The notes beneath the pieces were generated by a model. It saw only the letters and a program-made list of their open reading frames with translations. It made no database searches and was not told the DNA's origin. DNA of 38,939 nucleotides from a virus, in IMG/VR virus record IMGVR_UViG_3300017963_000146, positions 1 to 38,939 of that record; one strand, 5' to 3'. Shown here piece by piece: positions 1 through 38,939 of the stretch. Both the position numbers and the translations under genes were made by a program. Position 1 is the stretch's first letter. Each line of letters opens with the position of its first letter.

Positions 1-123
1 CAGGATCATACGAGCGAATGTCGGCATCCGTAAACCCAGACGCAAAGTGATGACCAGCTCTTAATGCGTTGATGTCAAAGTCTGCTAGCTTCGTTCCTGG
101 AGCGCTGAACTTCCCAGAACCTC
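1..123. repeat. Terminal direct repeat, left copy (circular junction)
   Basis: Bases 1-123 are identical to 38817-38939. An exact repeat of this size at the two ends of an assembled sequence, with one continuous reading frame running through it, is what a circular assembly leaves. It indicates a 38,816-bp circular or circularly permuted genome. A true 123-bp terminal repeat on a linear virion DNA cannot be excluded from sequence alone. Confidence 0.95.
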
Positions 124-1081
124 CGCTACCACCACCGGACGTAAACCTGCCATCGCCAAACCCTCGTTGCTCAATGGCTCGTTGAATATCGCGAGACAAC
201 TCTTGAGAACCAAAAGCCTGCAACCCCCTCATTGGAATCTCAGCCATCTCAACACCTGACCTGCCAAGCTCCCTTGCCTGTATCAGTGTGTTAAGCCCGA
301 TATTCGGAGCAGACAAACCAGACATCAAATTGGCACCAGCCTGCTCTCTGCCTGTGAATAATAGCTGTCCAAACTGTAGTCTGGAGCCAACCCTTTGAGC
401 AATAGACCCGCTAGTTGTAGCAGCCGCACCGGCAAGGGCCCCCAACCTTGAAGCCTCAGCAGCACGTCCCTCCTTGGATACGTTGTATCTCATCTCTGTG
501 GCGCCCTGCTCAAACGCCTGCAAGGCCCTAATACCGGCTTCAGTATTCGAATAACCAGGGCCCAACTGCATTGCCAGCCGCTCCTCCAGCTGTGTCCTGC
601 CTTCCTCGATATTTCGCTCTACTGTTGGGTCTTTGTATTCTCTACCAGTCTCCCTAACTGTTTGAGCGATCTGCTCTCTGATGTCAGCCTCTACATCAAA
701 ACCAGCAGAAGCAAATGCAGCCAAGTCCTCCTTGACCCCGCTGATAACCTCTGGGATCTCATCGCCAAACATTAGGGCCAGCTCTTGCGTTTGCTGAGTC
801 AGCTGCCTCAGCTTGTCCTTGTCTGGGACAAGAGCGCTTGCAACATCAATCTGCAAGTCAGCTATACCTTCCAGCCTTCGAACAGCTTCCTGGTTTCTTG
901 TCCTCTCGATCTCAAAGTCAGCCAACTGCTGCTCTAATACCTCTACCTGCTCGGCCTCCATGTCAGGTGGCAACTCTATGGGCTTGCCGCCCCCTCCACC
1001 TGCTAAGGCCGCCGAAGCACCAGTCGCAGCCGCACTAGTTAACCCAGTGATTAGTGTTGCCTCTGGAAGTCCCAAACCCAT
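1..1081 (-). CDS. Probable internal virion (ejection) protein, 5' part; gene crosses the junction
   Basis: Read leftward from an ATG at 1081 (AGGAG six bases upstream), the frame stays open to base 1 and continues at 38816 to a stop at 38776, giving 373 aa. The N-terminus is small-residue and Gly/Ala rich, including a run of five glycines, and is followed by a long charged helical region that looks like coiled coil. No enzymatic motif is visible. It is the first of three consecutive genes (373, 368 and 1702 aa) after the tail genes. That position is where T7-like and P22-like podophages keep the proteins ejected into the host with the DNA. The role is inferred from position and composition only. 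Confidence 0.6.
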   Translation of the reverse strand, partial: MGLGLPEATLITGLTSAAATGASAALAGGGGGKPIELPPDMEAEQVEVLEQQLADFEIERTRNQEAVRRLEGIADLQIDVASALVPDKDKLRQLTQQTQELALMFGDEIPEVISGVKEDLAAFASAGFDVEADIREQIAQTVRETGREYKDPTVERNIEEGRTQLEERLAMQLGPGYSNTEAGIRALQAFEQGATEMRYNVSKEGRAAEASRLGALAGAAATTSGSIAQRVGSRLQFGQLLFTGREQAGANLMSGLSAPNIGLNTLIQARELGRSGVEMAEIPMRGLQAFGSQELSRDIQRAIEQRGFGDGRFTSGGGSGGSGKFSAPGTKLADFDINALRAGHHFASGFTDADIRSYDP

Positions 1082-1083: not shown

Positions 1084-1509
1084 TTAACTCCTGATTCTCT
1101 GAACCCTATAGTGCTTGCCTTGAGCAATTTTTGCCCTAAACCAGCGAAGCCCACGGTTAGCCGCCCAATTACGTGCAGCTTGTAACATTGTCTTAGTCAC
1201 CGAACTATTTCGATAACCCTTGTTGATCCAAAAATGATGGTCAGCCACAACCTTGATGTCCTTGTTGTAGTACGCTGGCACCTCCATTAGGGCCAAACAT
1301 CCGACAAGCGAACCACCGTTTTCAGCAACCAATATCTCCATGCCATCAGTGTTAATCAAATGCGTTGCCTGTTCAGCAACAAACCTGGCATCATAACTGT
1401 CCGACCTTTCATCCATGGTCTCTTTAAAAAACTCGTGGCCCATAACCAAGAGCTCCTTGATGTCCTCCATGGATGCTTTGCGGACCTTTATGCCAGCGAT
1501 CTTTTTCAT
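1084..1509 (-). CDS. GNAT-family N-acetyltransferase
   Basis: The 141-aa protein starts KKIAGIKVRKASMEDI and has the usual GNAT order. There is an N-terminal strand and helix, then the strand MEILVAENGGSLVGCLALM around residues 57-75. The RNSSVTKTMLQAARNWA helix, where acetyl-CoA would bind, is near residues 99-115. The family transfers an acetyl group from acetyl-CoA to an amine; the substrate here is unknown. Its start overlaps the stop of the fiber gene (ATGA), so the two are translationally coupled and it is late expressed. Lone GNAT genes are common in the structural modules of podophages, and virion or host protein modification is a possible role. The C-terminus is slightly short for the family. 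Confidence 0.75.
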   Translation of the reverse strand: MKKIAGIKVRKASMEDIKELLVMGHEFFKETMDERSDSYDARFVAEQATHLINTDGMEILVAENGGSLVGCLALMEVPAYYNKDIKVVADHHFWINKGYRNSSVTKTMLQAARNWAANRGLRWFRAKIAQGKHYRVQRIRS

Positions 1510-10636: not shown

Positions 10637-11584
10637 TTATGAGCTTGTCACGTGGACAACGCGGGACTCACCCTGGTTAGCTGTAGGGAACACCTCACCA
10701 AATTGGAACACACCATACCACCCAGCCGCGTGCGAGCGACCAAGGTCAGCAGGTTGCTCACGCCTAATCTCAGGTGTAACAACGCTCGCCATGCGAACGG
10801 CGTCTTTACCAAAGACCACTGCCTCACCAAGAACACTGCCAGTGCCCTTAGATCCGCTTAGCGTGTTGGTATTCCCGACCTCGACGAATCGGATGCCTTC
10901 GATCTTCCCGACCTCGCCAGTCGCCTTAGCATCCATGTTGGTATAGCGGTTCCAGACCTCAAATTTGGGGTCCTGCTTGATACCACGCAGAGCCTTAGTC
11001 GATGCAAGACAGAAATACTCGTCGCCTTCAAAAGGCGGCACCCACAGAGTCGAGTACATATAGTCTCGAATCTGCTCAAGATGATAATAGTTAAGGTTCA
11101 CGGTTGCGGCAGTTGAAGCAGTACCATCAGTATCCCACGTCAAAGCCGACTCACCTGTTGGGATTGCCTTAACCTTACACCCTGTAAACGCGGTGATTCC
11201 CACCGTATCCATAACCAGAGTCATCTGATCGCGCAGCTTATCAACGATAGCCTGCGGCAAATCAAAATGAGAGAGGTCTGAGGACAATGAAGTCCAGGCC
11301 ACTTTACGACCAAACTCAGCCACAGTGATTTTCGTGGTCGAGATTGAGAAAGTGTCCTCTGGAATCTTCACGTTTTCAACTAGCTGTGCGCTAGTAGGGT
11401 GAGTAAGATTGGCAACCCGCGTCATTGTAACGGATTCGCCCACACCTTTACCCATGCCACCCTCGACATCCGGGGTAAACTGCAAGACCTTCGAGTCTGT
11501 GACGGCAGCAGCAAACACCCGCGCCGAGAGCTTGTTGTCTTTATAGGTTCCAGTGGGAGCGTCGAATGTCCAAGTCTGAGACAT
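10637..11584 (-). CDS. Major capsid protein, N4-gp56-like
   Basis: The 315-aa protein opens MSQTWTFDAPTGTYKDNKLS. It continues with the phrases typical of this HK97-fold capsid group: GVGESVTMTRVANLT, KIPEDTFSISTTKITVAEFG, and a helix with SLSSDLSHFDLPQAIVDKLR. Its length is near the family norm. It forms the icosahedral shell. The order scaffold, capsid, decoration, terminator is canonical for a head operon, and a promoter-like element sits upstream of the scaffold gene. No inserted domain or cleavage peptide is obvious. Confidence 0.85.
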   Translation of the reverse strand: MSQTWTFDAPTGTYKDNKLSARVFAAAVTDSKVLQFTPDVEGGMGKGVGESVTMTRVANLTHPTSAQLVENVKIPEDTFSISTTKITVAEFGRKVAWTSLSSDLSHFDLPQAIVDKLRDQMTLVMDTVGITAFTGCKVKAIPTGESALTWDTDGTASTAATVNLNYYHLEQIRDYMYSTLWVPPFEGDEYFCLASTKALRGIKQDPKFEVWNRYTNMDAKATGEVGKIEGIRFVEVGNTNTLSGSKGTGSVLGEAVVFGKDAVRMASVVTPEIRREQPADLGRSHAAGWYGVFQFGEVFPTANQGESRVVHVTSS

Positions 11585-15425: not shown

Positions 15426-17315
15426 TTACTCCTCCTCGGCAAACGGGCCAGTAGACTCTACTTGAGCCTCTGCCTCCGGGTTTCTCCTTGGCCCTGGGCG
15501 CTCTCCTCCATTACCACCCTCCATGGCTCCCATAGCTTTTTGGATTAGGTTTTGGACCTGTCCTTCGCGCCTACGTTGTTGTCTCTCCTCATCAGTCATA
15601 ATAATGGCCTCTTCCCGGATGCCGGAGTTTTTCACGATCTCTCCTAGTAGCTTAGTCATCGAGTATTCGCGCTGAAACTCAGACATTAGCTGTGGTGAGT
15701 CACCGATAATGCCGAGCAGCTGGACCAACTTTTGGAACTCTCTGAGCCTTGCGATAAAGCTGGACAGGCCTCTTACACGCACCTTGCCTGCAAACGCGCC
15801 TCTAGCAAACCTTTCCTCTGGGGACATCTGAGAAAGAACGTTTGCTGCTTCCTCACCAATTAGGGCTACTACTTCCCTGTTAAGAAAGTACTCTGATCGG
15901 ACATTTTGAAGGATCTCTAGCCAGCACTTTTCGAGTAGGGGGACAATCGCCTTGTCCTCTAAAATTCGCAACAACCCACCGAAGATGCCGGCTAGAGCAC
16001 CCTCCGCACGGTTGATGGAGGTAGCTTTCACGCCTGGGGCAGGAAGTTGTCCTAAACGCAATTCATTGCTGAAGGCTGCCTCATCACCATGGTTTCGTAT
16101 AACCTCTAGCATTGCCATAGAGTCTCTTGGAACGCGTCCTGTTGAGACCGTATTAAGCACAGGAACCCCTGCTGGTAGCGACGAATTGGTGAGCAGAGTG
16201 GTACCAGGTGGGATACGATCAGACACTTGCGAACGATCCTCAAGGCCATCCACGTTGAGTTGGGTAATATTGTTGGCCTCGTTCATTGCCCCATCCTCAA
16301 GCAGGGACATTAGCTCGTTATAGGTCTTGTTCATCTGTGCTGGTGCGTCCATGATTGCCTTGCCATGAACGCTCTTAGGTATGTCAATCAAGGCCGCTCG
16401 CACAAATGGTGACTCGCCATCCCATCTTGGGTTTTTCTCGGGTGGCCTAATTAGGTACTTATCGTTGGCTATAGCGCAAACCACGTTTTTCTCTTTGGCG
16501 CGTCCAGTACCCATGTCCAGCATGGTCCCCCAGAACTCCCTGACTGTTACGGGCTTCCTGTACTTTAAACGCCCAACCTCTGGCTCGTTCTTGTGTTGCT
16601 CTTTAGCCCTCTCCTCTTCCTCTCGGACAAACTCATCTTGGATGGACTCTATGACCTTCATGTCATAGACGCCCTCATCTTCAGCTGTCTCAATAAGGTC
16701 ATGGAGGTCACGTGTAACGCTATGGATCTCGAATAGTGGTCTGCCGCCAGGGTTTGGCGTTGGGTCAGTATCGAAGTCCTCAAATGGAATAACGTCGACA
16801 AACAGCTTCCACATTTTGAAGTGGTCTTTTTTGACCTTAACTTTAGGCTGAACAACGCCCTGAACCTCGACCACAGGGTTGCCACGTTCGGCCTTAAATC
16901 TAGGTACCCCATGAATCAGTGAGCCAACCTTGAGTGTCCCACAGCTCTCAAGCCCCATATATTTAGACATCTCGGCTATGACAGAGATGATGTCGGCGTT
17001 AAAGAGCTCATACCCCAAGAGGATTTTAATCATATGTCGATTAAACAGGGGGTCAGGCTCACGGCCGTCATCAACGGTAAAAAAGTCATCATTGCCGGCA
17101 GTAAGTCCGGAGGCGATGGTAGTGACCAGCTGCTCCAGTTGCAGGGCCATACGTGGTATGAACTCGCGAGACTGACCTGGCTGTTTGTGCTCGTAATTCT
17201 GGAGGTGTTGATACATCCGCCAGTTGAAGTCATTCTTTTGGCGGCGCCTCTCTTTTTTCTCTTTGGAGTGCTCTATGTAAGAGAGGATTATGTTAACGTA
17301 TTCTTGGTCGGTCAT
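15426..17315 (-). CDS. Portal protein
   Basis: The protein is 629 aa from the ATG at 17315 (MTDQEYVNIILSYIE), chosen because GGAGG lies nine bases upstream. It has the features of podophage head-tail connectors. These are a helical N-terminus, a stem and wing region, AQMNKTYNELMSLLEDGAMNE, and the PAPGVKATSINRAEGALAGI segment of the crown/stem transition. A charged Glu/Arg-rich C-terminus follows. Length is close to other podophage portals. It forms the dodecameric DNA channel and docks the terminase, encoded about 200 bp upstream. Confidence 0.85.
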   Translation of the reverse strand: MTDQEYVNIILSYIEHSKEKKERRRQKNDFNWRMYQHLQNYEHKQPGQSREFIPRMALQLEQLVTTIASGLTAGNDDFFTVDDGREPDPLFNRHMIKILLGYELFNADIISVIAEMSKYMGLESCGTLKVGSLIHGVPRFKAERGNPVVEVQGVVQPKVKVKKDHFKMWKLFVDVIPFEDFDTDPTPNPGGRPLFEIHSVTRDLHDLIETAEDEGVYDMKVIESIQDEFVREEEERAKEQHKNEPEVGRLKYRKPVTVREFWGTMLDMGTGRAKEKNVVCAIANDKYLIRPPEKNPRWDGESPFVRAALIDIPKSVHGKAIMDAPAQMNKTYNELMSLLEDGAMNEANNITQLNVDGLEDRSQVSDRIPPGTTLLTNSSLPAGVPVLNTVSTGRVPRDSMAMLEVIRNHGDEAAFSNELRLGQLPAPGVKATSINRAEGALAGIFGGLLRILEDKAIVPLLEKCWLEILQNVRSEYFLNREVVALIGEEAANVLSQMSPEERFARGAFAGKVRVRGLSSFIARLREFQKLVQLLGIIGDSPQLMSEFQREYSMTKLLGEIVKNSGIREEAIIMTDEERQQRRREGQVQNLIQKAMGAMEGGNGGERPGPRRNPEAEAQVESTGPFAEEE

Positions 17316-17478
17316 CGCGTTCCTCCGGGGGCGGCCCAAACTCATACCGTGGCCCCTTCATAGAAGAACGCTCTTCTTCGTGCCCATATTGAGCGAGGCA
17401 CCAAACACAAACGCCGATTGTCCTGGTAAGATCCAGGAACCGGCCGCAGAACTTACAGGTCGGGTACTCTGGCCTCAC
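17293..17478 (-). CDS. Small zinc-ribbon protein
   Basis: The 61-aa protein starts with GTG and has CKFC near residue 8 and CVWC near 23, a small four-cysteine zinc ribbon, then a charged Pro-rich tail. The 3' end overlaps the portal start by 23 bp. It sits between terminase and portal genes just after a promoter-like element. No classical ribosome site is visible; a seven-codon upstream frame (MYGSVSP) ends in a GTGA overlap with it, which may allow coupled translation. Function unknown. Confidence 0.5.
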   Translation of the reverse strand: MRPEYPTCKFCGRFLDLTRTIGVCVWCLAQYGHEEERSSMKGPRYEFGPPPEERDDRPRIR

Positions 17479-25744: not shown

Positions 25745-25745
25745 C

Positions 25746-26027: not shown

Positions 26028-26054
26028 CAACACACCAACCGAAAGGAGGCATCC

Positions 26055-26856: not shown

Positions 26857-27055
26857 GATTGACCTCGACCGCATGGTCACTACAGCCTTCAGAGATGGGC
26901 TGTGCGTAGCTATGTTTGACGCACCAGTCACCATAACATGGGCTGGAGCCTGCAAAAAAGCGTTCGACCAAGGCAAGGAAACAGGAGCCAAAATCAAAAC
27001 CATCCTAAAAGGAGATACCCATGACCGCCGTACCAGAGATCGGAGAAACACGTGA
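26828..27055 (+). CDS. Small early protein
   Basis: The 75-aa product starts MKINLPANTEIDLDRMVTTA after GGAGATCAGG. It has a helical centre with AGACKKAFDQGKETGAKIKT. The last 11 codons (HDRRTRDRRNT end) overlap the nuclease start. Unknown function. Confidence 0.5.
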   Translation: MKINLPANTEIDLDRMVTTAFRDGLCVAMFDAPVTITWAGACKKAFDQGKETGAKIKTILKGDTHDRRTRDRRNT

Positions 27056-27800: not shown

Positions 27801-28107
27801 CGACGCCATCAGATACTTGCGGTGCTCTTACAACCAACTAACGCGATGGAGGCGGAATAGCGGCCTCCCATGCAAGCGCCTTAACAACCGGTTTCTATTC
27901 AACAGAGAACTGCTAAAAGACTGGGCAACAAAAAACTCCCACCTGCTTTTGCCAGGGAGAAAAAAGAAAACCAACTCTCCTAAGAAAACATCAAAACCAA
28001 AAAGCGATGAACTACGCCTAAAGACAATCCAAGTGGATGCTCAAAACCTTATCGGCATTGACCAAGGAGGCAACGTATGGAAGCTGAAACGACTCAACGC
28101 AGTGTGA
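27739..28107 (+). CDS. HTH-type DNA-binding protein between nuclease and annealase
   Basis: The 122-aa product from the ATG at 27739 has AGAGGAG upstream. Residues 15-62 form an HTH pattern (AIRYLRCSYNQLTRWRRNSG, then NNRFLFNRELLKDWATK). A Lys/Ser/Pro-rich linker and a C-terminal strand unit (LKTIQVDAQNLIGIDQGGNV) follow. It overlaps both neighbours in other frames. A recombination accessory or a regulator of the operon is possible. Confidence 0.65.
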   Translation: MNLNHHEASEVKVFRWNWRANDAIRYLRCSYNQLTRWRRNSGLPCKRLNNRFLFNRELLKDWATKNSHLLLPGRKKKTNSPKKTSKPKSDELRLKTIQVDAQNLIGIDQGGNVWKLKRLNAV

Positions 28108-28895: not shown

Positions 28896-28900
28896 CCAGA

Positions 28901-28946
28901 GGGTGGGGGAGTTTGGATGCCTCCTTTCGCCCCCACCCATTTTTTT
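28901..28946 (+). terminator. Rho-independent terminator after the ERF gene
   Basis: GGGTGGGGG (28901-28909) pairs perfectly with CCCCCACCC (28931-28939) across a 21-base loop, followed by A and at least six T. It closes the rightward early operon six bases after the ERF stop and separates it from the replication genes. Confidence 0.9.
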
Positions 28947-28950
28947 CTTG

Positions 28951-29088
28951 TCAACGGCGGCGTTGAGGCTAAACTTTCTTGCATGGTGTACCCAACAATT
29001 CCCGTAAGAAGTTTTTAAGTTCGGCTAGCAACCCTATGGGTACACCAGCTTGTCGGACATGGGGGGCGGCATGTTCGTAGTCGCCCCT
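28951..29088 (+). promoter_or_regulatory. Structured gene-free leader before the replication genes
   Basis: TCAACG-GCGG-CGTTGA (28951-28966) is a small palindrome. TGGTGTACCCA (28984-28994) and TGGGTACACCA (29037-29047) are an 11-base perfect inverted repeat. CGGACATG/CATGTTCG (29054-29077) forms a hairpin with a G-rich loop, and GGGGCG of that loop (29063-29068) can instead pair with CGCCCC (29082-29087). No clear sigma70 promoter is seen. Control of replication gene expression, or an origin, is possible. Confidence 0.5.
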
Positions 29089-29108
29089 CAGATATTTGGA
29101 GTGGGCAA

Positions 29109-29333
29109 ATGTCATTCTGTGTTGCCGACGAACTCAACGACAAATACGGGTATCACAACGAGCACATCGTTATGGTGTGCGACAAATGCAAAGACATCAT
29201 CGCCATTTATTCCGAAGAGATACACTCCGCTCACTTTGGGTATCCAAGGTCAGAGCGGTATCACCTGTGCAAGACCTGCTCGGATAAACTCGAAAAAGAA
29301 AATGACCGACGCCGGAAGCTACAGGAAGAATGA
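29109..29333 (+). CDS. Zinc-ribbon protein
   Basis: The 74-aa product has CDKC at residues 24-27 and CKTC at 54-57 separated by a strand region, a typical four-cysteine ribbon, and a charged C-terminal helix (KLEKENDRRRKLQEE). GGAG lies before the ATG. It overlaps the replication initiator start by four bases (ATGA). It probably binds nucleic acid or a replication protein. Confidence 0.65.
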   Translation: MSFCVADELNDKYGYHNEHIVMVCDKCKDIIAIYSEEIHSAHFGYPRSERYHLCKTCSDKLEKENDRRRKLQEE

Positions 29334-30100
29334 TTTGGTTTAAGCACATGACTAATATGCGCCACGACCCAAAAGTTCAAAACTTGGTGAAGTGGTTTGG
29401 GCTTGAAGGCTATGCACGATGGTTGCTTATTCTTGAAATCATAGCCTCCGAAATGGACCAAACAGACAAGTGCTCAGTGACCCTGGATGAGACAATTTGG
29501 CGCAATGAGTTAAAGATTTATAGGTCCACATCACTCAGACATTACCTCGAATCTTGCCGCAATCTAGGCCTAATCTCCTTCCAATCTAGCCCCAATCTAC
29601 ACGGAATCTCCGGCGAATCTATCACCATTGTTTGCCCTAAGTTGCTGGAAATACGCGCACGCAAACAGCCTATCGGAAGCAAAACACGTCATACAGATAT
29701 AGAAGTAGAAGTAGAGAAAGATAACACTACGTGTTCCTCACGGAATAGTAGAGGGTCTCCTAAAGGAAAAAAGCCCAGTAAGAAAAAAGGAGAGTTAAGC
29801 AAAAAATATTACCCATCCTTCATGAAATTCTGGGAACTCTACCCAAGACAGCTAGACCATAGAATCGCATACACCTACTGGCTAAAGCTCAAACCAGACT
29901 CCACCCTAATTGAGAAAATCATGAGCGGCCTCAAAACACACATCGACACTGTATGGGTAGACAAAAAACTAGAGCACATCCCATCGCCAGTTAAATGGCT
30001 CAATGGACGGCGGTGGGAGGACGTACAAACCATCGCCAAACCCAAGCCAACAAAATACCGCAACCCCAAAGCCAACAAGGAGACTGAAGAGCCATGGTAA
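29330..30100 (+). CDS. Phage replication initiator / helicase loader-like protein
   Basis: The 256-aa protein has the N-terminal winged-helix type domain of phage replisome proteins (MIWFKHMTNMRHDPKVQNLV, GLEGYARWLLILEIIASEM; residues 1-110) and a charged linker. A C-terminal helical module follows (FWELYPRQLDHRIAYTYWLK, IPSPVKWLNGRRWEDV; about 165-235). That C-terminal motif is widespread in phage replication proteins and is thought to contact the helicase. The DnaB-like ATPase gene follows with a 7-bp overlap. It would open the origin and recruit helicase. Confidence 0.75.
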   Translation: MIWFKHMTNMRHDPKVQNLVKWFGLEGYARWLLILEIIASEMDQTDKCSVTLDETIWRNELKIYRSTSLRHYLESCRNLGLISFQSSPNLHGISGESITIVCPKLLEIRARKQPIGSKTRHTDIEVEVEKDNTTCSSRNSRGSPKGKKPSKKKGELSKKYYPSFMKFWELYPRQLDHRIAYTYWLKLKPDSTLIEKIMSGLKTHIDTVWVDKKLEHIPSPVKWLNGRRWEDVQTIAKPKPTKYRNPKANKETEEPW

Positions 30101-30963
30101 CGCTGGACCAAGCCATGCAGGAAATAGACCCTAAATGGGAAGCCAAGTTCCGCAAAGACTCCATCTCAACAGGGCTTACGATATTCAACCGACTAGTCAA
30201 CCGGCTACACTCGGAGAACAAACTAGAGCTCAGGATTAACTGGCCCAAGTTTAGCACCAAGTTCGGAGGCTTTCGTGGCCAAGAACTCACGACCCTAACG
30301 GGTGACACGGGCATGGGTAAGACTACTTGGGCCACCAATATCGCCTACATGATGTCTGAGATCGGAGCGAGGCCGCTTATCTTCAGCCTAGAGATGGGGC
30401 CAGAGTCAGTGCAAAAAAAGTTTTTCCGTATGCACTGCGGTATGCGCCCATCCAAGGAGAACGTGGTAGAGCACCACGAAAAGTTCACCACGTGGCTAAT
30501 AGACAACAAAGCCCTGTTCTATGACGGCCAAGACTACCTACCGTTCCACCACTTCAAACTCGTAACCGCATGGGGAGCACTCAAACAACAGTCCAAGTTC
30601 ATACTGCTAGACCACCTGGAGATGGTATTAAAGCCAGGCATGGACGCAGACGGTATCAGCAGGACAGTAGCCTCAATAAGGGCCTTAGCCTACAAGCTCA
30701 ACATCCACATCCTCGTTGTGGTTCAGCCAGCAAAACTCAAGGGAGACAGCAAGGAGCGCATGGTTGAGATGGACGACATGAAGGGGAGCTCAGGTATTAA
30801 GCAATTCAGCGACAATGTTTTCTCTATTTATTTCGATAAGAAAGAAAAAACCACGACAATGAAATTGCACAAAATGCGAGAGGACGACTACGGTAAATAC
30901 CAAGGCGACACGATAGGGTACAAACTGGGCGACATGAGCTTAACTTATTGGGAGGAGGAGTGA
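30094..30963 (+). CDS. DnaB-type RecA-fold helicase ATPase
   Basis: The 289-aa protein has Walker A GDTGMGKT (residues 70-77), the FSLEMG motif (97-102) with the catalytic Glu of DnaB-type helicases, and Walker B FILLDHLE (169-176). The ILVVVQPAKL segment corresponds to the Gln sensor motif, and there is a basic HKMRED end. Only the C-terminal ATPase domain of DnaB is present; the primase-binding N-domain is missing. The first 60 residues may link subunits. It is the replicative helicase or a loader-dependent substitute. Confidence 0.85.
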   Translation: MVTLDQAMQEIDPKWEAKFRKDSISTGLTIFNRLVNRLHSENKLELRINWPKFSTKFGGFRGQELTTLTGDTGMGKTTWATNIAYMMSEIGARPLIFSLEMGPESVQKKFFRMHCGMRPSKENVVEHHEKFTTWLIDNKALFYDGQDYLPFHHFKLVTAWGALKQQSKFILLDHLEMVLKPGMDADGISRTVASIRALAYKLNIHILVVVQPAKLKGDSKERMVEMDDMKGSSGIKQFSDNVFSIYFDKKEKTTTMKLHKMREDDYGKYQGDTIGYKLGDMSLTYWEEE

Positions 30964-31211
30964 TGGAGAAACTTGTAGAACAACTAGCAGAGATGGACAA
31001 AGAACAAAGGGACGAGATCACGATTGACCGAAAAGACTTGCTGGATGGCATAACCATGTTGCTCTCCCAGTACAAATTGCTTTTCAAGTTGCATGGTGAT
31101 ACAAATTCCATTCAGGCAATCTCTGATCTTCAGGCCCACGTTACCCAGTGGGGCACGGACTTCGTCAAAGACCATGTGGAGCATAACCCAAAACACGATA
31201 ACCTCTCGTAA
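30963..31211 (+). CDS. Small helical protein
   Basis: The 82-aa product starts at the ATG at 30963, overlapping the helicase stop, with GGAGGAGG upstream. It is acidic and helical (MEKLVEQLAEMDKEQRDEIT, LLDGITMLLSQYKLLFKLHG). It could be a small replication accessory. Unknown. Confidence 0.6.
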   Translation: MEKLVEQLAEMDKEQRDEITIDRKDLLDGITMLLSQYKLLFKLHGDTNSIQAISDLQAHVTQWGTDFVKDHVEHNPKHDNLS

Positions 31212-31368
31212 TGTCAAGGGGAGAGCGTTTTGTCGCAACTGCCACAAACGCTTTGTAGTTACAGTTACGCCCAGAGGAAAAGTCGCACATCGCACTGTTT
31301 ATTGTGCGCATTGTGGGACGGAATATCAACGCAAAGACGTGCAACTAGTTAAGGAGCTACCCAAGTGA
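31174..31368 (+). CDS. Zinc-ribbon protein
   Basis: The product is about 64 aa from the ATG at 31174; this start is uncertain and overlaps the previous gene by 38 bases. CRNC near residue 24 and CAHC near 47 make a four-cysteine ribbon with the strand RFVVTVTPRGKVAHRTVY between them, a nucleic-acid-binding type of fold. The stop overlaps the next gene (GTGA). Confidence 0.6.
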   Translation: MWSITQNTITSRNVKGRAFCRNCHKRFVVTVTPRGKVAHRTVYCAHCGTEYQRKDVQLVKELPK

Positions 31369-31988
31369 AAATGTTCCTTGGCTTCCTGGACATCACCCAT
31401 GCTACTGGGAAAGTCCCCTTTGGGTGGACTCTTATATCCAAATGGCAAAACTCTCCCATTGTCCACGTGTTCGTCGTATTCCAGCTAGGCGAGGAGCACA
31501 CCGTCTATGAAACCTCCGAGACAGTTTACTTAAAGAGACCGCTTAGAGAGCGAATGGCGGGGTGCAAAGCCCACTTTTTCGAAGTCTTTGGAGACACGGA
31601 AGCAGCACATGATTACTGCGAAGGATTAGTAAGCTCGGCTGTACCCTACGACTACCCATCCTACATTGGGTTCTCGATATTGCTTGGCGCAGAGTGGCTT
31701 ATCAACAAGCTAATCATCACCCCTGTTAACTGGTGTTACTCCAAACTCGCAAAAATTATGTGCTGGGCCAACAACAAACCGTATCCAAAGTTACGCCTTA
31801 TGTTTGTTGCCAATCCGTTCCATTCACAAAAGGCTTTGTTTTGCTCGGAGGCTGCGATCAATGCGGTGAACAAGGCTAACACAACTTTGCCGTCGTGGTG
31901 GCAGTCGGCTGCCGTGCTACCTCGGCAATTTTATTGGTTTGTGCTAGAACGAGACAAAGAGTTCCCACTAACGGAGTTACCAGTCTAA
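31365..31988 (+). CDS. Permuted papain-fold (NlpC/P60 YiiX-like) enzyme
   Basis: The 207-aa product starts with GTG at 31365 (AAGGAG upstream). H34 in SPIVHVFVVF comes first and C160 in ALFCSEAAINAV comes late, the His-before-Cys order of permuted NlpC/P60 enzymes (YiiX/LRAT group). A central hydrophobic helix (YIGFSILLGAEWLINKLII) may be a membrane or substrate lid. Such enzymes cleave amide bonds or transfer acyl groups on lipids and peptides. It lies in the replication operon, not the lysis cassette, so a host-directed role is likely. Confidence 0.65.
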   Translation: MKMFLGFLDITHATGKVPFGWTLISKWQNSPIVHVFVVFQLGEEHTVYETSETVYLKRPLRERMAGCKAHFFEVFGDTEAAHDYCEGLVSSAVPYDYPSYIGFSILLGAEWLINKLIITPVNWCYSKLAKIMCWANNKPYPKLRLMFVANPFHSQKALFCSEAAINAVNKANTTLPSWWQSAAVLPRQFYWFVLERDKEFPLTELPV

Positions 31989-31991
31989 CCA

Positions 31992-32345
31992 ATGGCAAGA
32001 CAAGAGAATGAAATCCTTAACGCAATCATGGACTACTTAAAGATTGTCCTTGAGCGCCGACATCCTTGTTACTTTTACCGCACCAACAATGTGCCAGCAG
32101 TAGAACGCACAAGAGATGGCATCATCAGGTTTAGGAAACGGCCCAAGCACTGTCCCAAGGGTATCCCTGACATTCACGGGGTGTGGTATGGAAAGTACGT
32201 CGGAATTGAAGTCAAGCATCGTAAAGGAAAGCAAAACAAGGATCAAAAGGCTTTCCAAAAGCGCGTTGAAGAGGGCCAAGGCATTTACTTCGTGGCTAGG
32301 TCGATTGAGGATGTCCAAACAGGCCTCTTCCCCAATGACTCCTAA
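31992..32345 (+). CDS. VRR-NUC domain nuclease
   Basis: The 117-aa protein is a single VRR-NUC domain. GIPDI carries D60, GIEVKHRKGKQNKDQKAF carries E73-V-K75, and RVEEGQGIYFVARSIEDV ends the fold. All expected PD-(D/E)XK metal and catalytic residues are present. Stand-alone phage VRR-NUC proteins are thought to cut branched or flap DNA, for example Holliday junctions. It ends in TAAATG with the HNH gene. Confidence 0.85.
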   Translation: MARQENEILNAIMDYLKIVLERRHPCYFYRTNNVPAVERTRDGIIRFRKRPKHCPKGIPDIHGVWYGKYVGIEVKHRKGKQNKDQKAFQKRVEEGQGIYFVARSIEDVQTGLFPNDS

Positions 32346-32744
32346 ATGGCAAAAACTGGCCGAGGGACTAGGGATAGAGATTTACAGCTGCTCGACAGAG
32401 TTAGACGCTCTCCGTGTCTTGTATGCAGAGCTTGCCCAAGTGAGCCACACCATCTTAGAACTAGAGGCGCAGGCGGAGGTGATACGGAGGACAATCTTGT
32501 CCCTCTCTGCCGGGTCCACCATAGGGAGCTCCATGACACAGGACGGTGGACGTTCGCTGCCAAGTATTCACTGACTAAGGAATTTGGGGAACGCCTCCAA
32601 AGAGTTCGCGAAGCCTCTGGCCAGGCCCAGGCATCTGCTCCTCAACCTGCTCAGTCGGACCATGGATTCGTTCACGCAGAATGTCCTTTTTCTGAAGGCG
32701 AATCTCAGCACCCTTGCGCGAAAGGTCGCGACGAAGAGACCTAA
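32346..32744 (+). CDS. HNH-type endonuclease-like protein, last rightward gene
   Basis: The 132-aa protein has an HNH finger: C24-x2-C27, H35/H36 in EPHHLRTRG, NLVPLC with N50 and C55, and H58, H59 and H63 in HHRELH. The pattern resembles DUF968/NinB-region nucleases of lambdoid phages. The core ends near residue 95; residues 95-132 are polar and disordered and are coded by the region that is antisense to the end of the 1702-aa ejection protein gene. No ribosome site is near; coupled to VRR-NUC. Confidence 0.75.
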   Translation: MAKTGRGTRDRDLQLLDRVRRSPCLVCRACPSEPHHLRTRGAGGGDTEDNLVPLCRVHHRELHDTGRWTFAAKYSLTKEFGERLQRVREASGQAQASAPQPAQSDHGFVHAECPFSEGESQHPCAKGRDEET

Positions 32745-35700
32745 ACATCTCTTTGGCAACATTGATCTTGCGAATCCTCACACCGCTCAACATGCTGGCA
32801 ACGTATAGTTTGTCCTCGGTACTCCACTTGTCCACCTTTTGGAGAAACGACAAGAACCGAGAAGCTGGTAAGCTCCGCAGAATCTCAACTATCTCAGGGT
32901 TGGCCGTATAGAATACCCCGTTACCCTCACGGTTAATGTGGGGCTGGAGATCAATGGACTCTTGTATTGACTTCGGTAGGTATTTAAACGCTGTTGGAAC
33001 CCTCGACATCCTTCCAACTGGCGCCTGGGTGAACGGGTCAACCCCAGTAGCCAGCTTGGCAAACATGGTACCAGGCAAGGACTGGAGCATGATCTGCCTG
33101 GCTACGCCCTTGGATCCAGGAACAATGCCTTTGCGAAACTCAGAGGTGAATTGAACCATGGTTTCTTGTGGTATGCCGAAACCTGATACAGCCGTAACCT
33201 CCTCACCCTTTCGGCCTACTGGGATTACAAACCCTATCTTGGCAATTTCACCTAAAACAGCGTCCTCTTCCTTCTCAGTAAGGTTGGCCCTGTTTTTCAT
33301 CCTGTTGGCTATGCGGTAAATGGACGAGTAAGCACCTGGGTAACGGGCAAACAGCTCAGCTTGGAGCTCGATATTCTTTCTTGTCCACGTGTAAAATGGA
33401 AAGATCCTTCTAAATACAGACCGCTCTATTGGGGAGAGGTTGCCATAGTCAAACAGAGTCTTTTTCACCATGGCTGCCGCTTCTTGGAAACTACGACCCT
33501 GCCTTACATGACTGACAAAATTCGTCAGTCTGGCTTGATTCTCAATACCAGACCCAAACTTACGTCCGTACTTTAGAAGCAGACTCTCATTGGAAAACAC
33601 GTTGACAGCACGTGCCCCCTTGCCGATCAGACCTCGCTGAATAGCATTAGCCAGTGAGGTCTCTAGTTCTTGGGCAGCGGTCTTTGTGAAGTCAGCTTTC
33701 AGCAAGTCCCCAGTAATAACGTCCATGCCCTTGGCGATCTGTGCCAGCTCCTCGTAAGTGTAAACCTGGCCTGTGCGTGTCTTGAGCGCTCCAGCAGAGG
33801 CATCCTTGAGCCGCTTCCCCATTGCCGCCCATCTCCCACCACGCTCCGCCAGCTCATCGGCTATGAAGTGGGAAAGAACCATGTTGGCTTGCAAGTTCCT
33901 TTTTGGATTGATCGCGTCCAGACCTATGTTCATGGAGTTCTGGACCACGTTTGAGATGAAGTTACGAGCATGGAACGCAGGGAACGGCGAGGTAAGGTAC
34001 CCCTTGTATAGGTTCAGAACCTTGTCGTAAGTCTTGCCTAGCTTCTTGAAGTGAGGGTCTGAGACAAAAGCAGTCTGGATCCGGTCAAGGTCCTTTTGGA
34101 TCTCAACCATGCTTACCCTGTGCTTCAGGTCCTTGATAACCTCAGACTTGATCTCATTGGCAGGCTTCCTGGCAACATTCTCAGGCAGCTCTCTAAATGG
34201 CATGATCCTTTTACGACCGCTCTTAGTCTGGACCTCAATCATCTCAAGACCAGCTACCTTGGGAAGCCCTGTCTTTACGTCATACTCAGGCACTATCCGG
34301 TCAATGGTAATAATGTCGTCAGCCTGTTTAACCGCTGGGGTTTGGCTACCCTCGATCATCAACTGCCTGCCGATATCATCGGCCGCCTTTTCAGGGATGA
34401 TGTATCCCTCTTTTTCAAAGACGTTCTTAACTGACTTAACGAACTGCCTACTACGACGAGCATTGGAGTGGGCCATGCCACGGATCATCATGAGTTCTGC
34501 GATGTCATCCACCGGGGTTAGACCTAATTGGTAAGCCTCGGCCAGTGTAGGAATAACACGCTGCTTGGCAAAACCAGGCGTGAACCCCTGCTGCCTGTAA
34601 GTAATCAGCTTCTCAATTACCTTGTCCGGCAAGTCCTTGTAAGCATGGTGAGCATAATTCTCTATGATCTCTTTTAAAATACCCTCACCCTGCTCAACAG
34701 CGCCCCAATAGCGGCTTATGTCATCCGCAGCATTGATGGCTTGTTGCATATGGGTTGGTAGGGCTTCAAATTTAAGAACGTCACCATCTGTTACCACCTT
34801 CTTGGCCACTGCTCTCAAGTCCCTGGGAAGCTCAGCAATAGGAGTCTCCTCAAGAGCCCATGTAACAAGGCGCCTTTCCGATGGTTTCAAGGATGAAAAC
34901 TTTTGGGTGAGATACCTAAGAAGGTCTTTTTTGTCGGAACTTACTTGGTCATAAAGGATGCCCTGCTTCAAGGGCGCATAACTCGGGTGACTAGACAGGT
35001 CTCGTTTGAAGATGCCCCTCATGGTGGCGCCTATCTCATTAAGGCGCTCTCCAACCATGCCGGGTTCTGCTTGGTCTAGGGCTCTGGCAAGTCCTGAAGC
35101 TCGGGCAGACGCCTTCCTGCTTCCATCAACCCTTCCAGCCATTCTGCGGAGTCCGGCCAATAGGTCTGCTTCTTGCTCGACGGCTCGGACTTTGTGGCCC
35201 TTACGCCATCCTTTACCAAGGAGCCTTTCGATGTCTTTTTCTTTGCCTTTGACATACCTGATCTCCCTATTTAATTTTAACAGTAGTGCTCTTTGGTGTA
35301 AAGTGTCATCTTTGGAAAAAAGAGCAAACTCATCAGGAGACCTCCAAACGTCCTTGATTGCTTCTAAGCCTTTAATTCTTTTATCCTTCGAAATATCAAG
35401 CGGAGGTAGCCGATCACCGTTGGCCTTGCGTCTCCTCCAGATAGTCTCTAGCTGTGCCTCAGATTGGTCCATATAGCTCAAACGGGTCTTAGAACCTTTC
35501 TGTTTGGCCTTAGACAGCACTTCGTTCATTTTTGGGGCACTATGGCCAGTAGACTCAAAAACAGTCGCTACGCCATCATCTAGGCCTTTCCCCAGCTGGG
35601 CCGTACTCAGTAAGGAGCTCTCGTCATGAACATACTGTGGGAGATTGGGGTCGTATTCAGAGATGTAGGACTTGTAAGCATCCGGGTTTGCTTCGAAATA

Positions 35701-37683
35701 TTTCCCCTTGGCATCCCCAGGAATCAATATCTGTTGGGCCTCAGACTTCCCTGCCCCAGCAGACCCCATATAAACATCAAGAACTGGCTCCTTGATAGGG
35801 TCCTTTGGGGTAGTCCTCTCCAAGATTTTCCTGTGTAGGGGTGCCCTGTCAGAGAACTGGCCAAGAGCCTCACCGCTTAACTCCTGATCCAAGGTGAACT
35901 TCCTAGAACCATCAGGGTTGACGGCCTCTACTGTCTTGGTCCTTGGCCCCTTCTTGCTGAACCCCTCTAGGGCCGCTTCACCCTCTATGGCTGTCCTGGC
36001 CTCGACTTGTTCAGCCATCTTGCGAGCCCTAAGAGCTTCCTTGGTTTCACCAGGCAACCTGCCAGCGATCTCGTCTATGGCCTTTGGGAATGGTTTACCA
36101 ACCACACCCCTAGTGGCCTTGTTGACTGCCGAATCAATACCCCTATCAATCCTCTTAACGGCACGCCGAATCTGGTCCCCAGTTAACACCTGGCTCTGCT
36201 TACCAAGACCAAACCAATTAAACTTTATTCCACCCAAGTCTCTAAGGGCTGGGTTCTGCTTGGCCATCGCCTCTATAAGACGGTCAGCCTCCTCGATGCC
36301 TTTCTTCCCTATTAAGTCAATATAGATAGGCTCTCCCTGCTTGCTCAAGGTAAACTGATTAACCTTAATGGGGATGTCCACAGTCTCTTGTAACTGTTGA
36401 GAGAGGATGTCGTGCTCTCTAAGAACATCATCAGTGGCTTTGTTTTTCTTAATTTGTTTCTGGATCTCGCGAAGCCGCTTTTCCTTCTTGACCAAACTGG
36501 CAATCTTTTTCTCTGTCCTCAATACCTCAGTAAGGTCACCTGTCTTTTTGGCGATTTGCTTCTCTAGTTGAAGTTGCCCCTTTAGCATCCCGCGAGCTTC
36601 AGCCTTGATAACTCGCTTCGCTGCTACCTGTCCTCCAGCCTTTAGACCTCGGCCAATGCCAAAAGAAACCCATGTGGATGGAGAAGTAAGGATTTCGGCT
36701 ACATCACCGCTCAAACCCAAAAACGCAGCCAAAATAGAGTTAAGTGGAGCCTCCGGCAGCTTCTTGTCCGTAAACGGGATCTTTTGACCGCCTATATCTG
36801 GGCCGCTTGCCATCCAGTCAGGGTTGTCCCGTTTCAACTTGTCAAGAACCAAGTCACCAAACCACTTGTCTCCAAACTTGTATTCCTCAGACGCATCAAT
36901 AAGAAACTGTGCAGCATAAGGATGGGTATGCGGTGTCCTGGTAGGATGGGCACCCTTTTGAAACTGTGCCTCTAAGTCCAAGATGTCAGCCTTCTCAAGT
37001 CCCAACAGCATGGCAAACAGCTTGCGCCTCTGAGGACCAAGATCAATCGTGTCCAAACCCTTGGCCAGCTTCATTAGCCCCTTGAGACCACCTTTCCACA
37101 CAGGATCAAAAATGCTCTTAGCACCACCCAGCAATTTGTTGGCCAACGAGTCTATGTCAGCATCCCGACCAACGCGATTGGCCTTCATCTCCTCAAACCG
37201 CGCCAACTGAATCTTGCTTTTAGCCTGCGACTCAATTCTGTTCAGCGTGTCTTGAGCTTGCTTGATGCCCTCAATGTCCTGCTCCTGTTTTGCAACCTCC
37301 AGCGAACGCCGAACAACGTCAGTTTGACCCAACATCTCATTTCGCACGCCTTCAACATATTGAATGTAAGCCTCATTCTCCCATGGTTTCTCTGGCTTTT
37401 TCTCCACGAGCTTCCAAGGAGCTTTCAAAACATTCTCTGCCACGTCGGAAAGAGGGTCGGGAATGTCGGTAGGCACCTCGGGGATCTTAGTTTGTGGAAC
37501 TCGACCCCTTACTTTGGCAATATTCTCCAGTGCTTGCTTGCCCGCAAGATCGTCAAACTCACCCTCTACAGTAGGAGGGTCAATCTTTTTGCCGGTGCGA
37601 AGCTCTCCTATTTTTTTAAGAGCCGTTGTCGCAGAGGCATCAAAGATATTCTGAAGGATTAACTTGTCACTCAGTCCCGCCAC
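32575..37683 (-). CDS. Giant ejection/polyvalent protein with zeta-toxin-like kinase domain
   Basis: The 1702-aa product (GTG start) is the largest protein. It is helical and lysine rich at 100-240 and 350-440. Residues 632-770 look like a zeta/PezT kinase. They carry Walker A GSAGAGKS (640-647), ANPDAYK with possible base D668, HDESS with E688, FESTGHS with T712, and R750-R752 and R758 in WRRRKANGDRLPP. Residues 1225-1460 (SPFPAFHARNFISNVVQNSM, FPFYTWTRKNIELQAELFAR) resemble the C-terminal modules of phage polyvalent proteins. It is last in the ejection gene trio and probably enters the host with DNA, like T7 gp16. I see no clear peptidoglycan hydrolase motif. Confidence 0.75.
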   Translation of the reverse strand: MAGLSDKLILQNIFDASATTALKKIGELRTGKKIDPPTVEGEFDDLAGKQALENIAKVRGRVPQTKIPEVPTDIPDPLSDVAENVLKAPWKLVEKKPEKPWENEAYIQYVEGVRNEMLGQTDVVRRSLEVAKQEQDIEGIKQAQDTLNRIESQAKSKIQLARFEEMKANRVGRDADIDSLANKLLGGAKSIFDPVWKGGLKGLMKLAKGLDTIDLGPQRRKLFAMLLGLEKADILDLEAQFQKGAHPTRTPHTHPYAAQFLIDASEEYKFGDKWFGDLVLDKLKRDNPDWMASGPDIGGQKIPFTDKKLPEAPLNSILAAFLGLSGDVAEILTSPSTWVSFGIGRGLKAGGQVAAKRVIKAEARGMLKGQLQLEKQIAKKTGDLTEVLRTEKKIASLVKKEKRLREIQKQIKKNKATDDVLREHDILSQQLQETVDIPIKVNQFTLSKQGEPIYIDLIGKKGIEEADRLIEAMAKQNPALRDLGGIKFNWFGLGKQSQVLTGDQIRRAVKRIDRGIDSAVNKATRGVVGKPFPKAIDEIAGRLPGETKEALRARKMAEQVEARTAIEGEAALEGFSKKGPRTKTVEAVNPDGSRKFTLDQELSGEALGQFSDRAPLHRKILERTTPKDPIKEPVLDVYMGSAGAGKSEAQQILIPGDAKGKYFEANPDAYKSYISEYDPNLPQYVHDESSLLSTAQLGKGLDDGVATVFESTGHSAPKMNEVLSKAKQKGSKTRLSYMDQSEAQLETIWRRRKANGDRLPPLDISKDKRIKGLEAIKDVWRSPDEFALFSKDDTLHQRALLLKLNREIRYVKGKEKDIERLLGKGWRKGHKVRAVEQEADLLAGLRRMAGRVDGSRKASARASGLARALDQAEPGMVGERLNEIGATMRGIFKRDLSSHPSYAPLKQGILYDQVSSDKKDLLRYLTQKFSSLKPSERRLVTWALEETPIAELPRDLRAVAKKVVTDGDVLKFEALPTHMQQAINAADDISRYWGAVEQGEGILKEIIENYAHHAYKDLPDKVIEKLITYRQQGFTPGFAKQRVIPTLAEAYQLGLTPVDDIAELMMIRGMAHSNARRSRQFVKSVKNVFEKEGYIIPEKAADDIGRQLMIEGSQTPAVKQADDIITIDRIVPEYDVKTGLPKVAGLEMIEVQTKSGRKRIMPFRELPENVARKPANEIKSEVIKDLKHRVSMVEIQKDLDRIQTAFVSDPHFKKLGKTYDKVLNLYKGYLTSPFPAFHARNFISNVVQNSMNIGLDAINPKRNLQANMVLSHFIADELAERGGRWAAMGKRLKDASAGALKTRTGQVYTYEELAQIAKGMDVITGDLLKADFTKTAAQELETSLANAIQRGLIGKGARAVNVFSNESLLLKYGRKFGSGIENQARLTNFVSHVRQGRSFQEAAAMVKKTLFDYGNLSPIERSVFRRIFPFYTWTRKNIELQAELFARYPGAYSSIYRIANRMKNRANLTEKEEDAVLGEIAKIGFVIPVGRKGEEVTAVSGFGIPQETMVQFTSEFRKGIVPGSKGVARQIMLQSLPGTMFAKLATGVDPFTQAPVGRMSRVPTAFKYLPKSIQESIDLQPHINREGNGVFYTANPEIVEILRSLPASRFLSFLQKVDKWSTEDKLYVASMLSGVRIRKINVAKEMFRSLRRDLSRKGAEIRLQKKDILRERIHGPTEQVEEQMPGPGQRLRELFGGVPQIP

Positions 37684-38773
37684 TTGTTGCCCCAGAGCGT
37701 TGGATCAATACCCTCAAGTTTTGCATCAACTCAGGGTTGTCCATAGCCTCTCTTTCAAGTTGCTCTTTTGTCCCGAATTGATCCAGCAAGGCCTTTTGAT
37801 ACTCTGGCCTCAAACGATCAAACGAAAAACCAGTTGGCTCCTGAAGGGGCCTATCACCAGAGATTACTCCAGCAGCCTGCTCTTCAGAGAAAGTTACAGG
37901 CTGTTCATCTCCTTTAACAAACTTGCCCTTTTCCCCAGCTTCAAACTGCTGCCTACTAATATTAGTAAAAGCCTCGACAATCTCTGGGTCGTCTGTAGTG
38001 ATCGGCTTAAACCCCTCCGCCTTCAACATCGTATTCGCTTTACTTATAATCTGGTCAAGTCTCTGTCCCTTCACAACCTGCCCAGTAAACGGGTCAACTT
38101 TGATTTCACCGCTTTTAAGGCCAGCTGCAAACACCTTACTGATAAGAGCCCTTCTCTGTGTGGCCTTTGGCCCCTTCTCTCCAACAGTGGCAGCCTCAGC
38201 CAAAGCCTTCTTGGTTTGAGCCCGTCTAAGACCTGTTGTGGCGCGTGTCTCCTTGACCTGTGCCGACTTTAGATCAAAGTCGTTAAGTTGGGTAATAAGA
38301 CCAAAGACCTTTTCCATGTCACCCTGTCTTAAATCCTCCATTTGCTGCATCATTCCAACGGGCAACTTCGATGGGTCGTACTCTCCCTTTCTTAGACCAT
38401 CAGCCAACTGCATCAGCTTGGTCATAGACTGCCGGCCATACGATGTCTCCATGGTTGTAATCAGGGTGTTGTAACCCTCGTCTGTCATGGGCTCAGCTAC
38501 ATCCGGCCTAAACATCCCGTTAAGGCGTTTTTTAACAAATGGTATCTTCGCATAAGCCTTGCCCAGCTTCTTGTCATTGCCCATCAAGGTGGACAGCTGG
38601 TTAAACGTTTGCATCCCAGAGTTAAACTTTGAGGCCTCCAGCTTTGTCTGCATAACCTCCCTCTGAAGATCCAAAGTCTTTTGCCGTTCTTGCAATGCAC
38701 CGTAATTGGCCAGGGTGTTCGAGACACCCGTTAAACCAGTTCCAATGCCTGCCAATATTTCAGAAGCACCCAT
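37667..38773 (-). CDS. Probable internal virion (ejection) protein
   Basis: The 368-aa product starts MGASEILAGIGTGLTGVSNT, a Gly/Ala-rich helix similar in kind to the neighbour's start, followed by coiled-coil-like charged helices (residues 25-200). The C-terminal part is acidic and contains PTGFSFDRLRPEYQKALLDQ. It has no enzyme motif. Its stop overlaps the giant gene start by 17 bp, and its own ATG follows the 373-aa gene stop by two bases. Ejection-complex component by position. Confidence 0.6.
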   Translation of the reverse strand: MGASEILAGIGTGLTGVSNTLANYGALQERQKTLDLQREVMQTKLEASKFNSGMQTFNQLSTLMGNDKKLGKAYAKIPFVKKRLNGMFRPDVAEPMTDEGYNTLITTMETSYGRQSMTKLMQLADGLRKGEYDPSKLPVGMMQQMEDLRQGDMEKVFGLITQLNDFDLKSAQVKETRATTGLRRAQTKKALAEAATVGEKGPKATQRRALISKVFAAGLKSGEIKVDPFTGQVVKGQRLDQIISKANTMLKAEGFKPITTDDPEIVEAFTNISRQQFEAGEKGKFVKGDEQPVTFSEEQAAGVISGDRPLQEPTGFSFDRLRPEYQKALLDQFGTKEQLEREAMDNPELMQNLRVLIQRSGATSGGTE

Positions 38774-38775: not shown

Positions 38776-38939
38776 TTACCCCCTAGCCCTACGATCCATT
38801 ACCTGTTGCCACAAATCAGGATCATACGAGCGAATGTCGGCATCCGTAAACCCAGACGCAAAGTGATGACCAGCTCTTAATGCGTTGATGTCAAAGTCTG
38901 CTAGCTTCGTTCCTGGAGCGCTGAACTTCCCAGAACCTC
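38776..38939 (-). CDS. 3' end of the junction-crossing ejection protein gene
   Basis: This is the downstream part of the 373-aa gene that begins at 1081. Bases 38817-38939 duplicate 1-123, and the unique end codes DPDLWQQVMDRRARG then a stop at 38776-38778, two bases before the next ATG. Confidence 0.85.
   Translation of the reverse strand, partial: GSGKFSAPGTKLADFDINALRAGHHFASGFTDADIRSYDPDLWQQVMDRRARG
38817..38939. repeat. Terminal direct repeat, right copy
   Basis: This is the exact second copy of bases 1-123. It lies wholly inside the reading frame of the 373-aa gene that crosses the junction, so that gene appears in two pieces in this window. Confidence 0.95.

What the first reader, a model, noticed from the sequence alone, without database searches (positions are those of the whole stretch)
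35350..35790. Zeta-toxin-like kinase domain inside the giant ejection protein
Residues 632-770 of the 1702-aa protein show Walker A, an NPD-x-YK base candidate, HDESS, STGH and a WRRR-x-NGDRLPP arginine set, the order seen in zeta/PezT kinases. If this protein is injected with the DNA, the phage would deliver a kinase that may attack UDP-GlcNAc or another host target at the moment of entry. Zeta domains are known in polyvalent proteins, but an intact one in a virion ejection protein is worth testing.
Basis: partly seen in the sequence, partly recalled or inferred. Interest (0 to 1): 0.75.

Follow-up and report, generated by a model that had tools for sequence, protein, structure and literature searches.

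The report
Zeta-type kinase in phage ejection protein
A short-tailed phage carries, inside the giant protein it probably squirts into the cell together with its DNA, what looks like an intact kinase of the zeta-toxin family; such kinases were already known on other phage head proteins, but not, as far as I could find, on a protein of this ejection-machine family.

Summary
Residues 612-797 (window 35293-35850, -) of the 1702-aa protein form a zeta-superfamily P-loop kinase. Pfam Zeta_toxin matches at 36.3 bits, E 5e-9. An AlphaFold2 model matches zeta and PezT best over the whole domain, Z 17. All five residues essential in zeta have counterparts: K646, D668, E710, R750, R758. The domain belongs to a phage subfamily with a VH[DE]ES motif, seen here on MuF head proteins and in halovirus head modules. 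The carrier is a podovirus giant protein, last in the virion operon. Its C-terminal half is related to cyanophage A4 pre-ejectosome protein ORF26L, to API480 gp16, found by mass spectrometry in an unpurified phage preparation, and to predicted large polyvalent proteins. None of 80 related carriers has a zeta domain. Injection and kinase activity remain inferred. The substrate is undecided: UDP-GlcNAc is not shown, and the structural relative AvrRxo1 phosphorylates NAD. Zeta kinases fused to phage MuF proteins, with proposed injection, were published in 2017. This is a new variant of a known kind.

The parts
32575..37683 (-). 1702-aa giant late protein that carries the kinase domain; last gene of the virion operon
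   Evidence: ORF; operon overlaps; relatives
35293..35850 (-). zeta-superfamily P-loop kinase domain, residues 612-797
   Evidence: Pfam PF06414; AF2 model pLDDT 81.4, pTM 0.78; Foldseek and VIA best matches PezT and zeta
35743..35766 (-). Walker A GSAGAGKS, residues 640-647 (K646 = zeta K46)
   Evidence: K invariant in 41/41 phage relatives
35671..35688 (-). NPDAYK, residues 666-671, catalytic-base candidate D668 (= zeta D67)
   Evidence: D and K invariant in 41/41; aligned with zeta
35614..35631 (-). VHDESS, residues 685-690, signature of the phage zeta subfamily
35539..35556 (-). ESTGHS, residues 710-715; E710 = zeta E116, T712 = zeta T118
35401..35442 (-). IWRRRKANGDRLPP, residues 748-761; R750 and R758 = zeta R158 and R171 candidates
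   Evidence: both invariant in 41/41
36637..36720 (-). N-terminal motif LGLSGDVAEILTSPSTWVSFGIGRGLKA (residues 322-349) like one in some other carriers
   Evidence: pattern found in 11 of 62 giants scanned, the window's own included
32719..35112 (-). conserved carrier core, residues about 858-1655, with PFPAFHARN (1233-1241) and FPFYTWTRKN (1428-1437)
   Evidence: hhalign to cyanophage A4 ORF26L and API480 gp16; Foldseek to large polyvalent proteins
37667..38773 (-). 368-aa ORF directly upstream, overlaps the giant by 17 nt; candidate second internal virion protein
   Evidence: position only; no family hit
1..1081 (-). start of a 373-aa gene that runs across the contig ends to about 38776; candidate third internal virion protein
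1084..1509 (-). GNAT-type acetyltransferase ORF, at the position of the P22 gp14 / T7 internal-virion-protein-A-like gene annotated in phiGT1
10637..11584 (-). major capsid protein
   Evidence: phrog_1357; matches API480 major capsid protein
15426..17345 (-). portal protein, SU10 type
   Evidence: PF23899
17511..18842 (-). terminase large subunit
   Evidence: PF04466

Best explanation
The 1702-aa protein is a podoviral ejection (pre-ejectosome) protein of the large polyvalent kind, with an intact zeta-superfamily kinase domain upstream of its conserved core. Shown here: the zeta fold (predicted model), the complete set of catalytic residues, membership of a phage zeta subfamily, and homology of the carrier core to a solved pre-ejectosome protein. 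Inferred: the protein is packaged and leaves the capsid with the DNA, the kinase part reaches the cytoplasm, and there it transfers the ATP gamma-phosphate to a small nucleotide-type metabolite at the moment of entry, hampering the host while the phage takes over. UDP-GlcNAc (blocking wall synthesis) is the first candidate; NAD or another nucleotide is nearly as likely.
For: Pfam 36.3 bits, E 5e-9. AF2 model pLDDT 81. Foldseek top eight chains all PezT or zeta, E 2e-8 to 2.5e-7. VIA: zeta 1gvn Z 17.3 over 190 residues, PezT 17.1; of the listed matches only zeta, PezT and AvrRxo1 also cover the N-terminal helix. Catalytic set K646/D668/E710/R750/R758 kept. Same subfamily on a MuF head protein (L024) and in the head module of HVTV-1 and HCTV-5. 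Carrier core related to A4 ORF26L, hhalign 96.4%, E 1.4e-9, which is chain A of the A4 pre-ejectosome 9k3a; that chain also ranks first of 451 in VIA. Carrier homologue API480 gp16: hhalign 98.2%, 71 unique peptides and 61% coverage by mass spectrometry. Last gene of the late operon after GNAT, 373-aa and 368-aa ORFs.
Against: No proteomics for this phage, and the API480 sample was unpurified and also contained non-virion proteins. VIA Z to A4 is only 5.5, in the range where a common arrangement is possible. No detectable relation to T7 gp16. No UDP-GlcNAc-binding residues could be assigned beyond the shared catalytic ones. None of 80 related carriers has the domain, so the phage type does not need it.
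Confidence: 0.62

Rival explanations
1. The same delivered kinase phosphorylates NAD (or a related dinucleotide) at the ribose, like AvrRxo1, and so acts on host redox or NAD metabolism rather than on the cell wall.
For: Profile search of the PDB with the window domain plus two relatives hits zeta and AvrRxo1 almost equally (22.8 and 20.6 bits). Shared N-terminal R..LH helix, D-x-[YF]-K and VH.ESS features. VIA Z 14.7 over 189 residues, 20% identity against 15% for zeta. AvrRxo1 makes 3'-NADP and not phosphorylated UDP-GlcNAc.
Against: The fold score is lower than for zeta and PezT. Substrate cannot be read from fold.
Confidence: 0.22
2. The domain is a polynucleotide-kinase-like repair enzyme delivered at entry to heal DNA or RNA ends cut by host defences.
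For: Bacterial polynucleotide kinases score VIA Z 15.5 over the core; phage T4 uses such an enzyme against anticodon nucleases (own knowledge).
Against: Polynucleotide kinases align only from residue 22, without the N-terminal helix. The base motif is D-x-x-K as in zeta. The subfamily signature is that of the zeta-annotated phage proteins. No ligase or phosphatase partner noticed among the window ORFs scanned.
Confidence: 0.08
3. The domain is a leftover: it keeps the fold but serves only for binding or assembly inside the capsid, without enzymatic role.
For: Zeta is absent from 80 relatives. The window domain is divergent, at most 27% identical to any phage relative, on a long branch.
Against: All residues invariant in 41 relatives at the ATP and base positions are kept despite this divergence, which is expected only under selection for catalysis. 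Composition fits the rest of the gene.
Confidence: 0.1
4. The protein is not injected; it is made late in the infected cell and the kinase helps arrest or lyse that cell.
For: It lies in the late operon; zeta toxins interfere with wall synthesis and can lyse dividing cells (PMC5923241).
Against: The carrier core belongs to a pre-ejectosome-related family, and a homologue is among the best-covered proteins in a phage preparation.
Confidence: 0.12

Closest known systems
Phage MuF-zeta fusion proteins and zeta-carrying polyvalent proteins (Iyer et al. 2017, PMC5512222); locus L024 here
   Same: Same zeta subfamily with VH[DE]ESS (L024), fused to a protein of the virion module; injection proposed in that paper
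   Different: Carrier there is MuF (head) or a conjugative polyvalent protein; here it is a podoviral pre-ejectosome-type giant, with the domain inside the protein rather than at its C-terminus as in L024
HVTV-1 gp115 and HCTV-5 gp114 (zeta plus ART or ParB domains)
   Same: Zeta domain with the closest sequence match in the phage collection (27% identity, E 5e-5), large protein in the head module
   Different: Haloarchaeal tailed viruses, other partner domains, no carrier core
zeta toxin of pSM19035 and PezT
   Same: Fold (Z 17), catalytic residues
   Different: Free-standing toxins with an antitoxin; here a domain of a virion-type protein, no antitoxin gene recognised among the ORFs scanned
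AvrRxo1 kinase domain
   Same: Fold, N-terminal helix, D-x-[YF]-K and VH.ESS features
   Different: Delivered by type III secretion into plants; phosphorylates NAD
Cyanophage A4 pre-ejectosome protein ORF26L (PDB 9k3a chain A) and API480 gp16
   Same: Homologous carrier core
   Different: No zeta domain recognised

Membership tests
zeta-toxin kinase superfamily | zeta/PezT fold over the whole domain | tested here: met
   (Z 17.3, 190 residues, rmsd 2.8)
zeta-toxin kinase superfamily | Walker A lysine, catalytic Asp, Glu, two Arg (zeta K46, D67, E116, R158, R171) | tested here: met
   K646, D668, E710, R750, R758
zeta-toxin kinase superfamily | UDP-GlcNAc-binding residues such as E100 and T128 | tested here: inconclusive
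   No clear counterpart to E100 in the alignment; T118 counterpart is T712
zeta-toxin kinase superfamily | phosphorylation of UDP-GlcNAc | not testable with these tools
   needs an in vitro assay
epsilon/zeta toxin-antitoxin module | adjacent antitoxin gene | tested here: inconclusive
   No epsilon or PezA domain among the window ORFs scanned with Pfam; not exhaustive
phage polyvalent proteins | large multidomain protein encoded among virion genes, enzymatic domain plus carrier domain | tested here: met
   core model matches large polyvalent protein associated domain proteins
phage polyvalent proteins | curated LPD domain such as LPD38 by sequence profile | tested here: inconclusive
   No LPD hit in Pfam up to E 1; similarity only by predicted fold
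podoviral pre-ejectosome / ejection proteins | homology to a protein solved in a pre-ejectosome | tested here: met
   A4 ORF26L: hhalign 96.4%, E 1.4e-9, controls 1-4.5%; VIA Z 5.5, rank 1
podoviral pre-ejectosome / ejection proteins | presence in the virion and transfer into the cell | not testable with these tools
   only indirect: API480 gp16 peptides in an unpurified preparation
T7 gp16 family | sequence-profile relation to T7 gp16 | tested here: inconclusive
   hhalign probability 1%

The most novel reading that the evidence does not exclude
A podovirus ejectosome protein doubles as the carrier of an active small-molecule kinase toxin, so that the DNA-ejection machinery itself delivers an enzyme that blocks a host metabolite (UDP-GlcNAc or NAD) within the first moments of infection; the carrier family is a general platform on which phages swap effector cargo.
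Probability: 0.4. Interest if true: 0.7.

Novelty: new variant of a known kind. Interest (0 to 1): 0.5.

Why it matters
Polyvalent proteins were proposed from sequence to be injected effectors, mostly without structural context. Here the carrier part is tied by homology to a protein seen in a solved pre-ejectosome, which makes the injection hypothesis directly testable for a kinase with a defined fold and active site. If the kinase acts on UDP-GlcNAc or NAD at entry, phages would have a way to hit cell-wall or redox metabolism before any phage gene is transcribed.

Tried and rejected
Close relatives of the whole protein or of the kinase domain alone in phages, viral contigs or plasmids: none or very weak. 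Relatives by the terminase in viral contigs: none. Single-sequence PDB search: only a chance hit to a designed protein. NCBIfam and PADLOC: no family. Zeta domain in other carriers: none in 80 carriers, none over the cut-off in 14 whole records (one sub-threshold hit at G007:26081-26431, outside the giant). Carrier core in other phage zeta proteins: none convincing (best E 2.4e-3 in a tiny set). Pfam scan of 26 long carriers found no recognisable cargo. Foldseek of the core against PDB: nothing significant; T7 core proteins appear in VIA only at Z about 3 over 71 residues, and a T7 gp16 profile match is absent. Recent-import test by composition and codon usage: the domain looks like the rest of the gene. 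The paper on the A4 pre-ejectosome is not held; only its PDB entries were used. AvrRxo1 was named and not fetched.

Full report
What the window is. The contig is a tailed-phage genome of 38939 bases with an exact 123-bp repeat at both ends, so it is probably a complete unit of 38816 bp. The minus strand carries the virion genes: terminase large subunit (PF04466) 17511-18842, portal of the SU10 type (PF23899) 15426-17345, major capsid protein 10637-11584 (also matching the API480 capsid protein), and so on to a GNAT-type ORF 1084-1509. Across the contig ends follow a 373-aa gene, a 368-aa gene and the 1702-aa gene, overlapping by a few bases each. In phiGT1 a GNAT-like protein is annotated as the P22 gp14 / T7 internal virion protein A homologue shortly before the putative injection proteins. 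The giant gene as last of the virion module recurs in MW202795, API480 and Cellulosimicrobium phage DS1.

The observation. The motifs are present at the stated residues. Pfam Zeta_toxin matches residues 621-765 with 36.3 bits, E 5.1e-9, well above the generic AAA_33 model. The Pfam model alone is not specific, since it passes its cut-off in 13 of 14 control genomes, so I looked for independent support. The nearest phage relatives are zeta-annotated proteins of the haloviruses HVTV-1 and HCTV-5 (27% identity, E 5e-5 and 9e-5), encoded in the head module upstream of the major capsid gene. Pattern scans built from the shared EYD...VHDES signature found further phage zeta proteins, among them L024, where one ORF holds Phage_Mu_F and Zeta_toxin. 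In 41 non-redundant relatives, positions not fixed by the search pattern are conserved and kept in the window: R613 (37/41), H617 (38), K646 (41), D668 (41), K671 (41), T712 (36), R750 (41), R758 (41). E710 is aspartate in all 41 but glutamate in classical zeta, as here. The columns of the EY...VH[DE]E.S motif are invariant by selection and are no evidence.

Structure. A model of residues 610-800 from a 7-sequence alignment has mean pLDDT 81.4 and pTM 0.78. Foldseek against the PDB ranks PezT and zeta first (E 2e-8), then AvrRxo1 (1e-6) and polynucleotide kinases. VIA-align gives zeta 1gvn Z 17.3 (190 residues, rmsd 2.8), PezT 17.1, bacterial polynucleotide kinase 15.5 (158 residues), AvrRxo1 14.7 (189 residues); of the listed matches only zeta, PezT and AvrRxo1 also cover the N-terminal helix. 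Published mutagenesis of zeta finds K46, D67, E116, R158 and R171 essential and E100 and T128 partly dispensable (PMC6356619); counterparts of the five essential residues are present.

The carrier. A search with the FPFYTW region of the core returned 80 viral-contig loci. Their giant ORFs share residues about 850-1655 of the window protein, are otherwise very variable in length, and none has a zeta domain. A pattern for an N-terminal motif present at window residues 322-349 is found in 11 of 62 giants, the window's own included. So the kinase sits between carrier elements, in a variable region. A profile of 50 core sequences matches API480 gp16 (hhalign 98.2%, E 4e-14) and Anabaena cyanophage A-4L ORF26L (96.4%, E 1.4e-9); controls gave 4.5%, 1.0% and 1.0% (L005 giant, A-4L ORF27L, T7 gp16). 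ORF26L and ORF27L match chains A and B of PDB 9k3a, the cyanophage A4 pre-ejectosome, over their whole length, and ORF28L matches chains of 9k2v, where it is called internal protein. A model of the core (pLDDT 71) has 9k3a_A as the best of 451 PDB chains re-aligned (Z 5.5, 154 residues) and T7 core proteins next (Z about 3). Z 5.5 alone would be weak, but it overlaps the region of the profile match. In the viral library the core matches many proteins named large polyvalent protein associated domain-containing, plus single ones named for zeta toxin, ART-PolyVal or LT_GEWL domains. API480 gp16 was identified with 71 unique peptides and 60.75% coverage; the sample was unpurified phage and also held replication proteins, and the listed mass of 128 kDa does not fit the deposited 1631-aa gene (PMC6937236).

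How it most likely works. Shown: fold (predicted), catalytic residues, subfamily, carrier homology. Inferred: packaging, ejection with the DNA, arrival of the kinase in the cytoplasm, activity. The substrate is open. Zeta and PezT phosphorylate UDP-GlcNAc; AvrRxo1, which shares the N-terminal helix and the D-x-[YF]-K and VH.ESS features with the window domain, does not use UDP-GlcNAc to a significant extent and makes 3'-NADP (PMC5087710, PMC5491322). I put UDP-GlcNAc or a similar sugar nucleotide slightly ahead of NAD because zeta and PezT are the closest folds.

Known or new. Iyer et al. [quoted passage not shown] The new part is the carrier: a podoviral pre-ejectosome-type giant. One database protein, A0A6J5NQE1, named for a zeta domain, has a part with the same core fold, so the combination may not be unique. 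I could not fetch it.

Noticed in passing
window 1-123 and 38817-38939: Exact 123-bp direct repeat at the contig ends; a 373-aa gene reads across the join.
   Followed up: yes
window 32346-32744 (+) against 32575-37683 (-): An HNH-type ORF overlaps the 3' end of the giant gene antisense by 170 bases; the same arrangement is annotated in MW202795 (L002 13796-14374 against 10593-13913).
   Followed up: no
L142 (IMGVR_UViG_3300035698_018518), zeta ORF on the - strand: An intein-like insert (CLSADHEH...ITGN) of roughly 300 residues splits the Walker A loop of a phage zeta kinase.
   Followed up: partly
L055 4338-10835: A 2166-aa carrier relative has, after the core, a HEISH zincin-like motif and stretches matching phrog_30118 and phrog_9880, as expected of polyvalent proteins.
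   Followed up: partly
L021 3-2525 and L006 11632-15573: Halovirus zeta proteins also carry an ADP-ribosyltransferase domain (PF03496), so two effector-type domains share one head-module protein.
   Followed up: no
window 24001-32000: AT skew turns strongly positive where the plus-strand genes lie and is mostly negative in the minus-strand virion genes.
   Followed up: no
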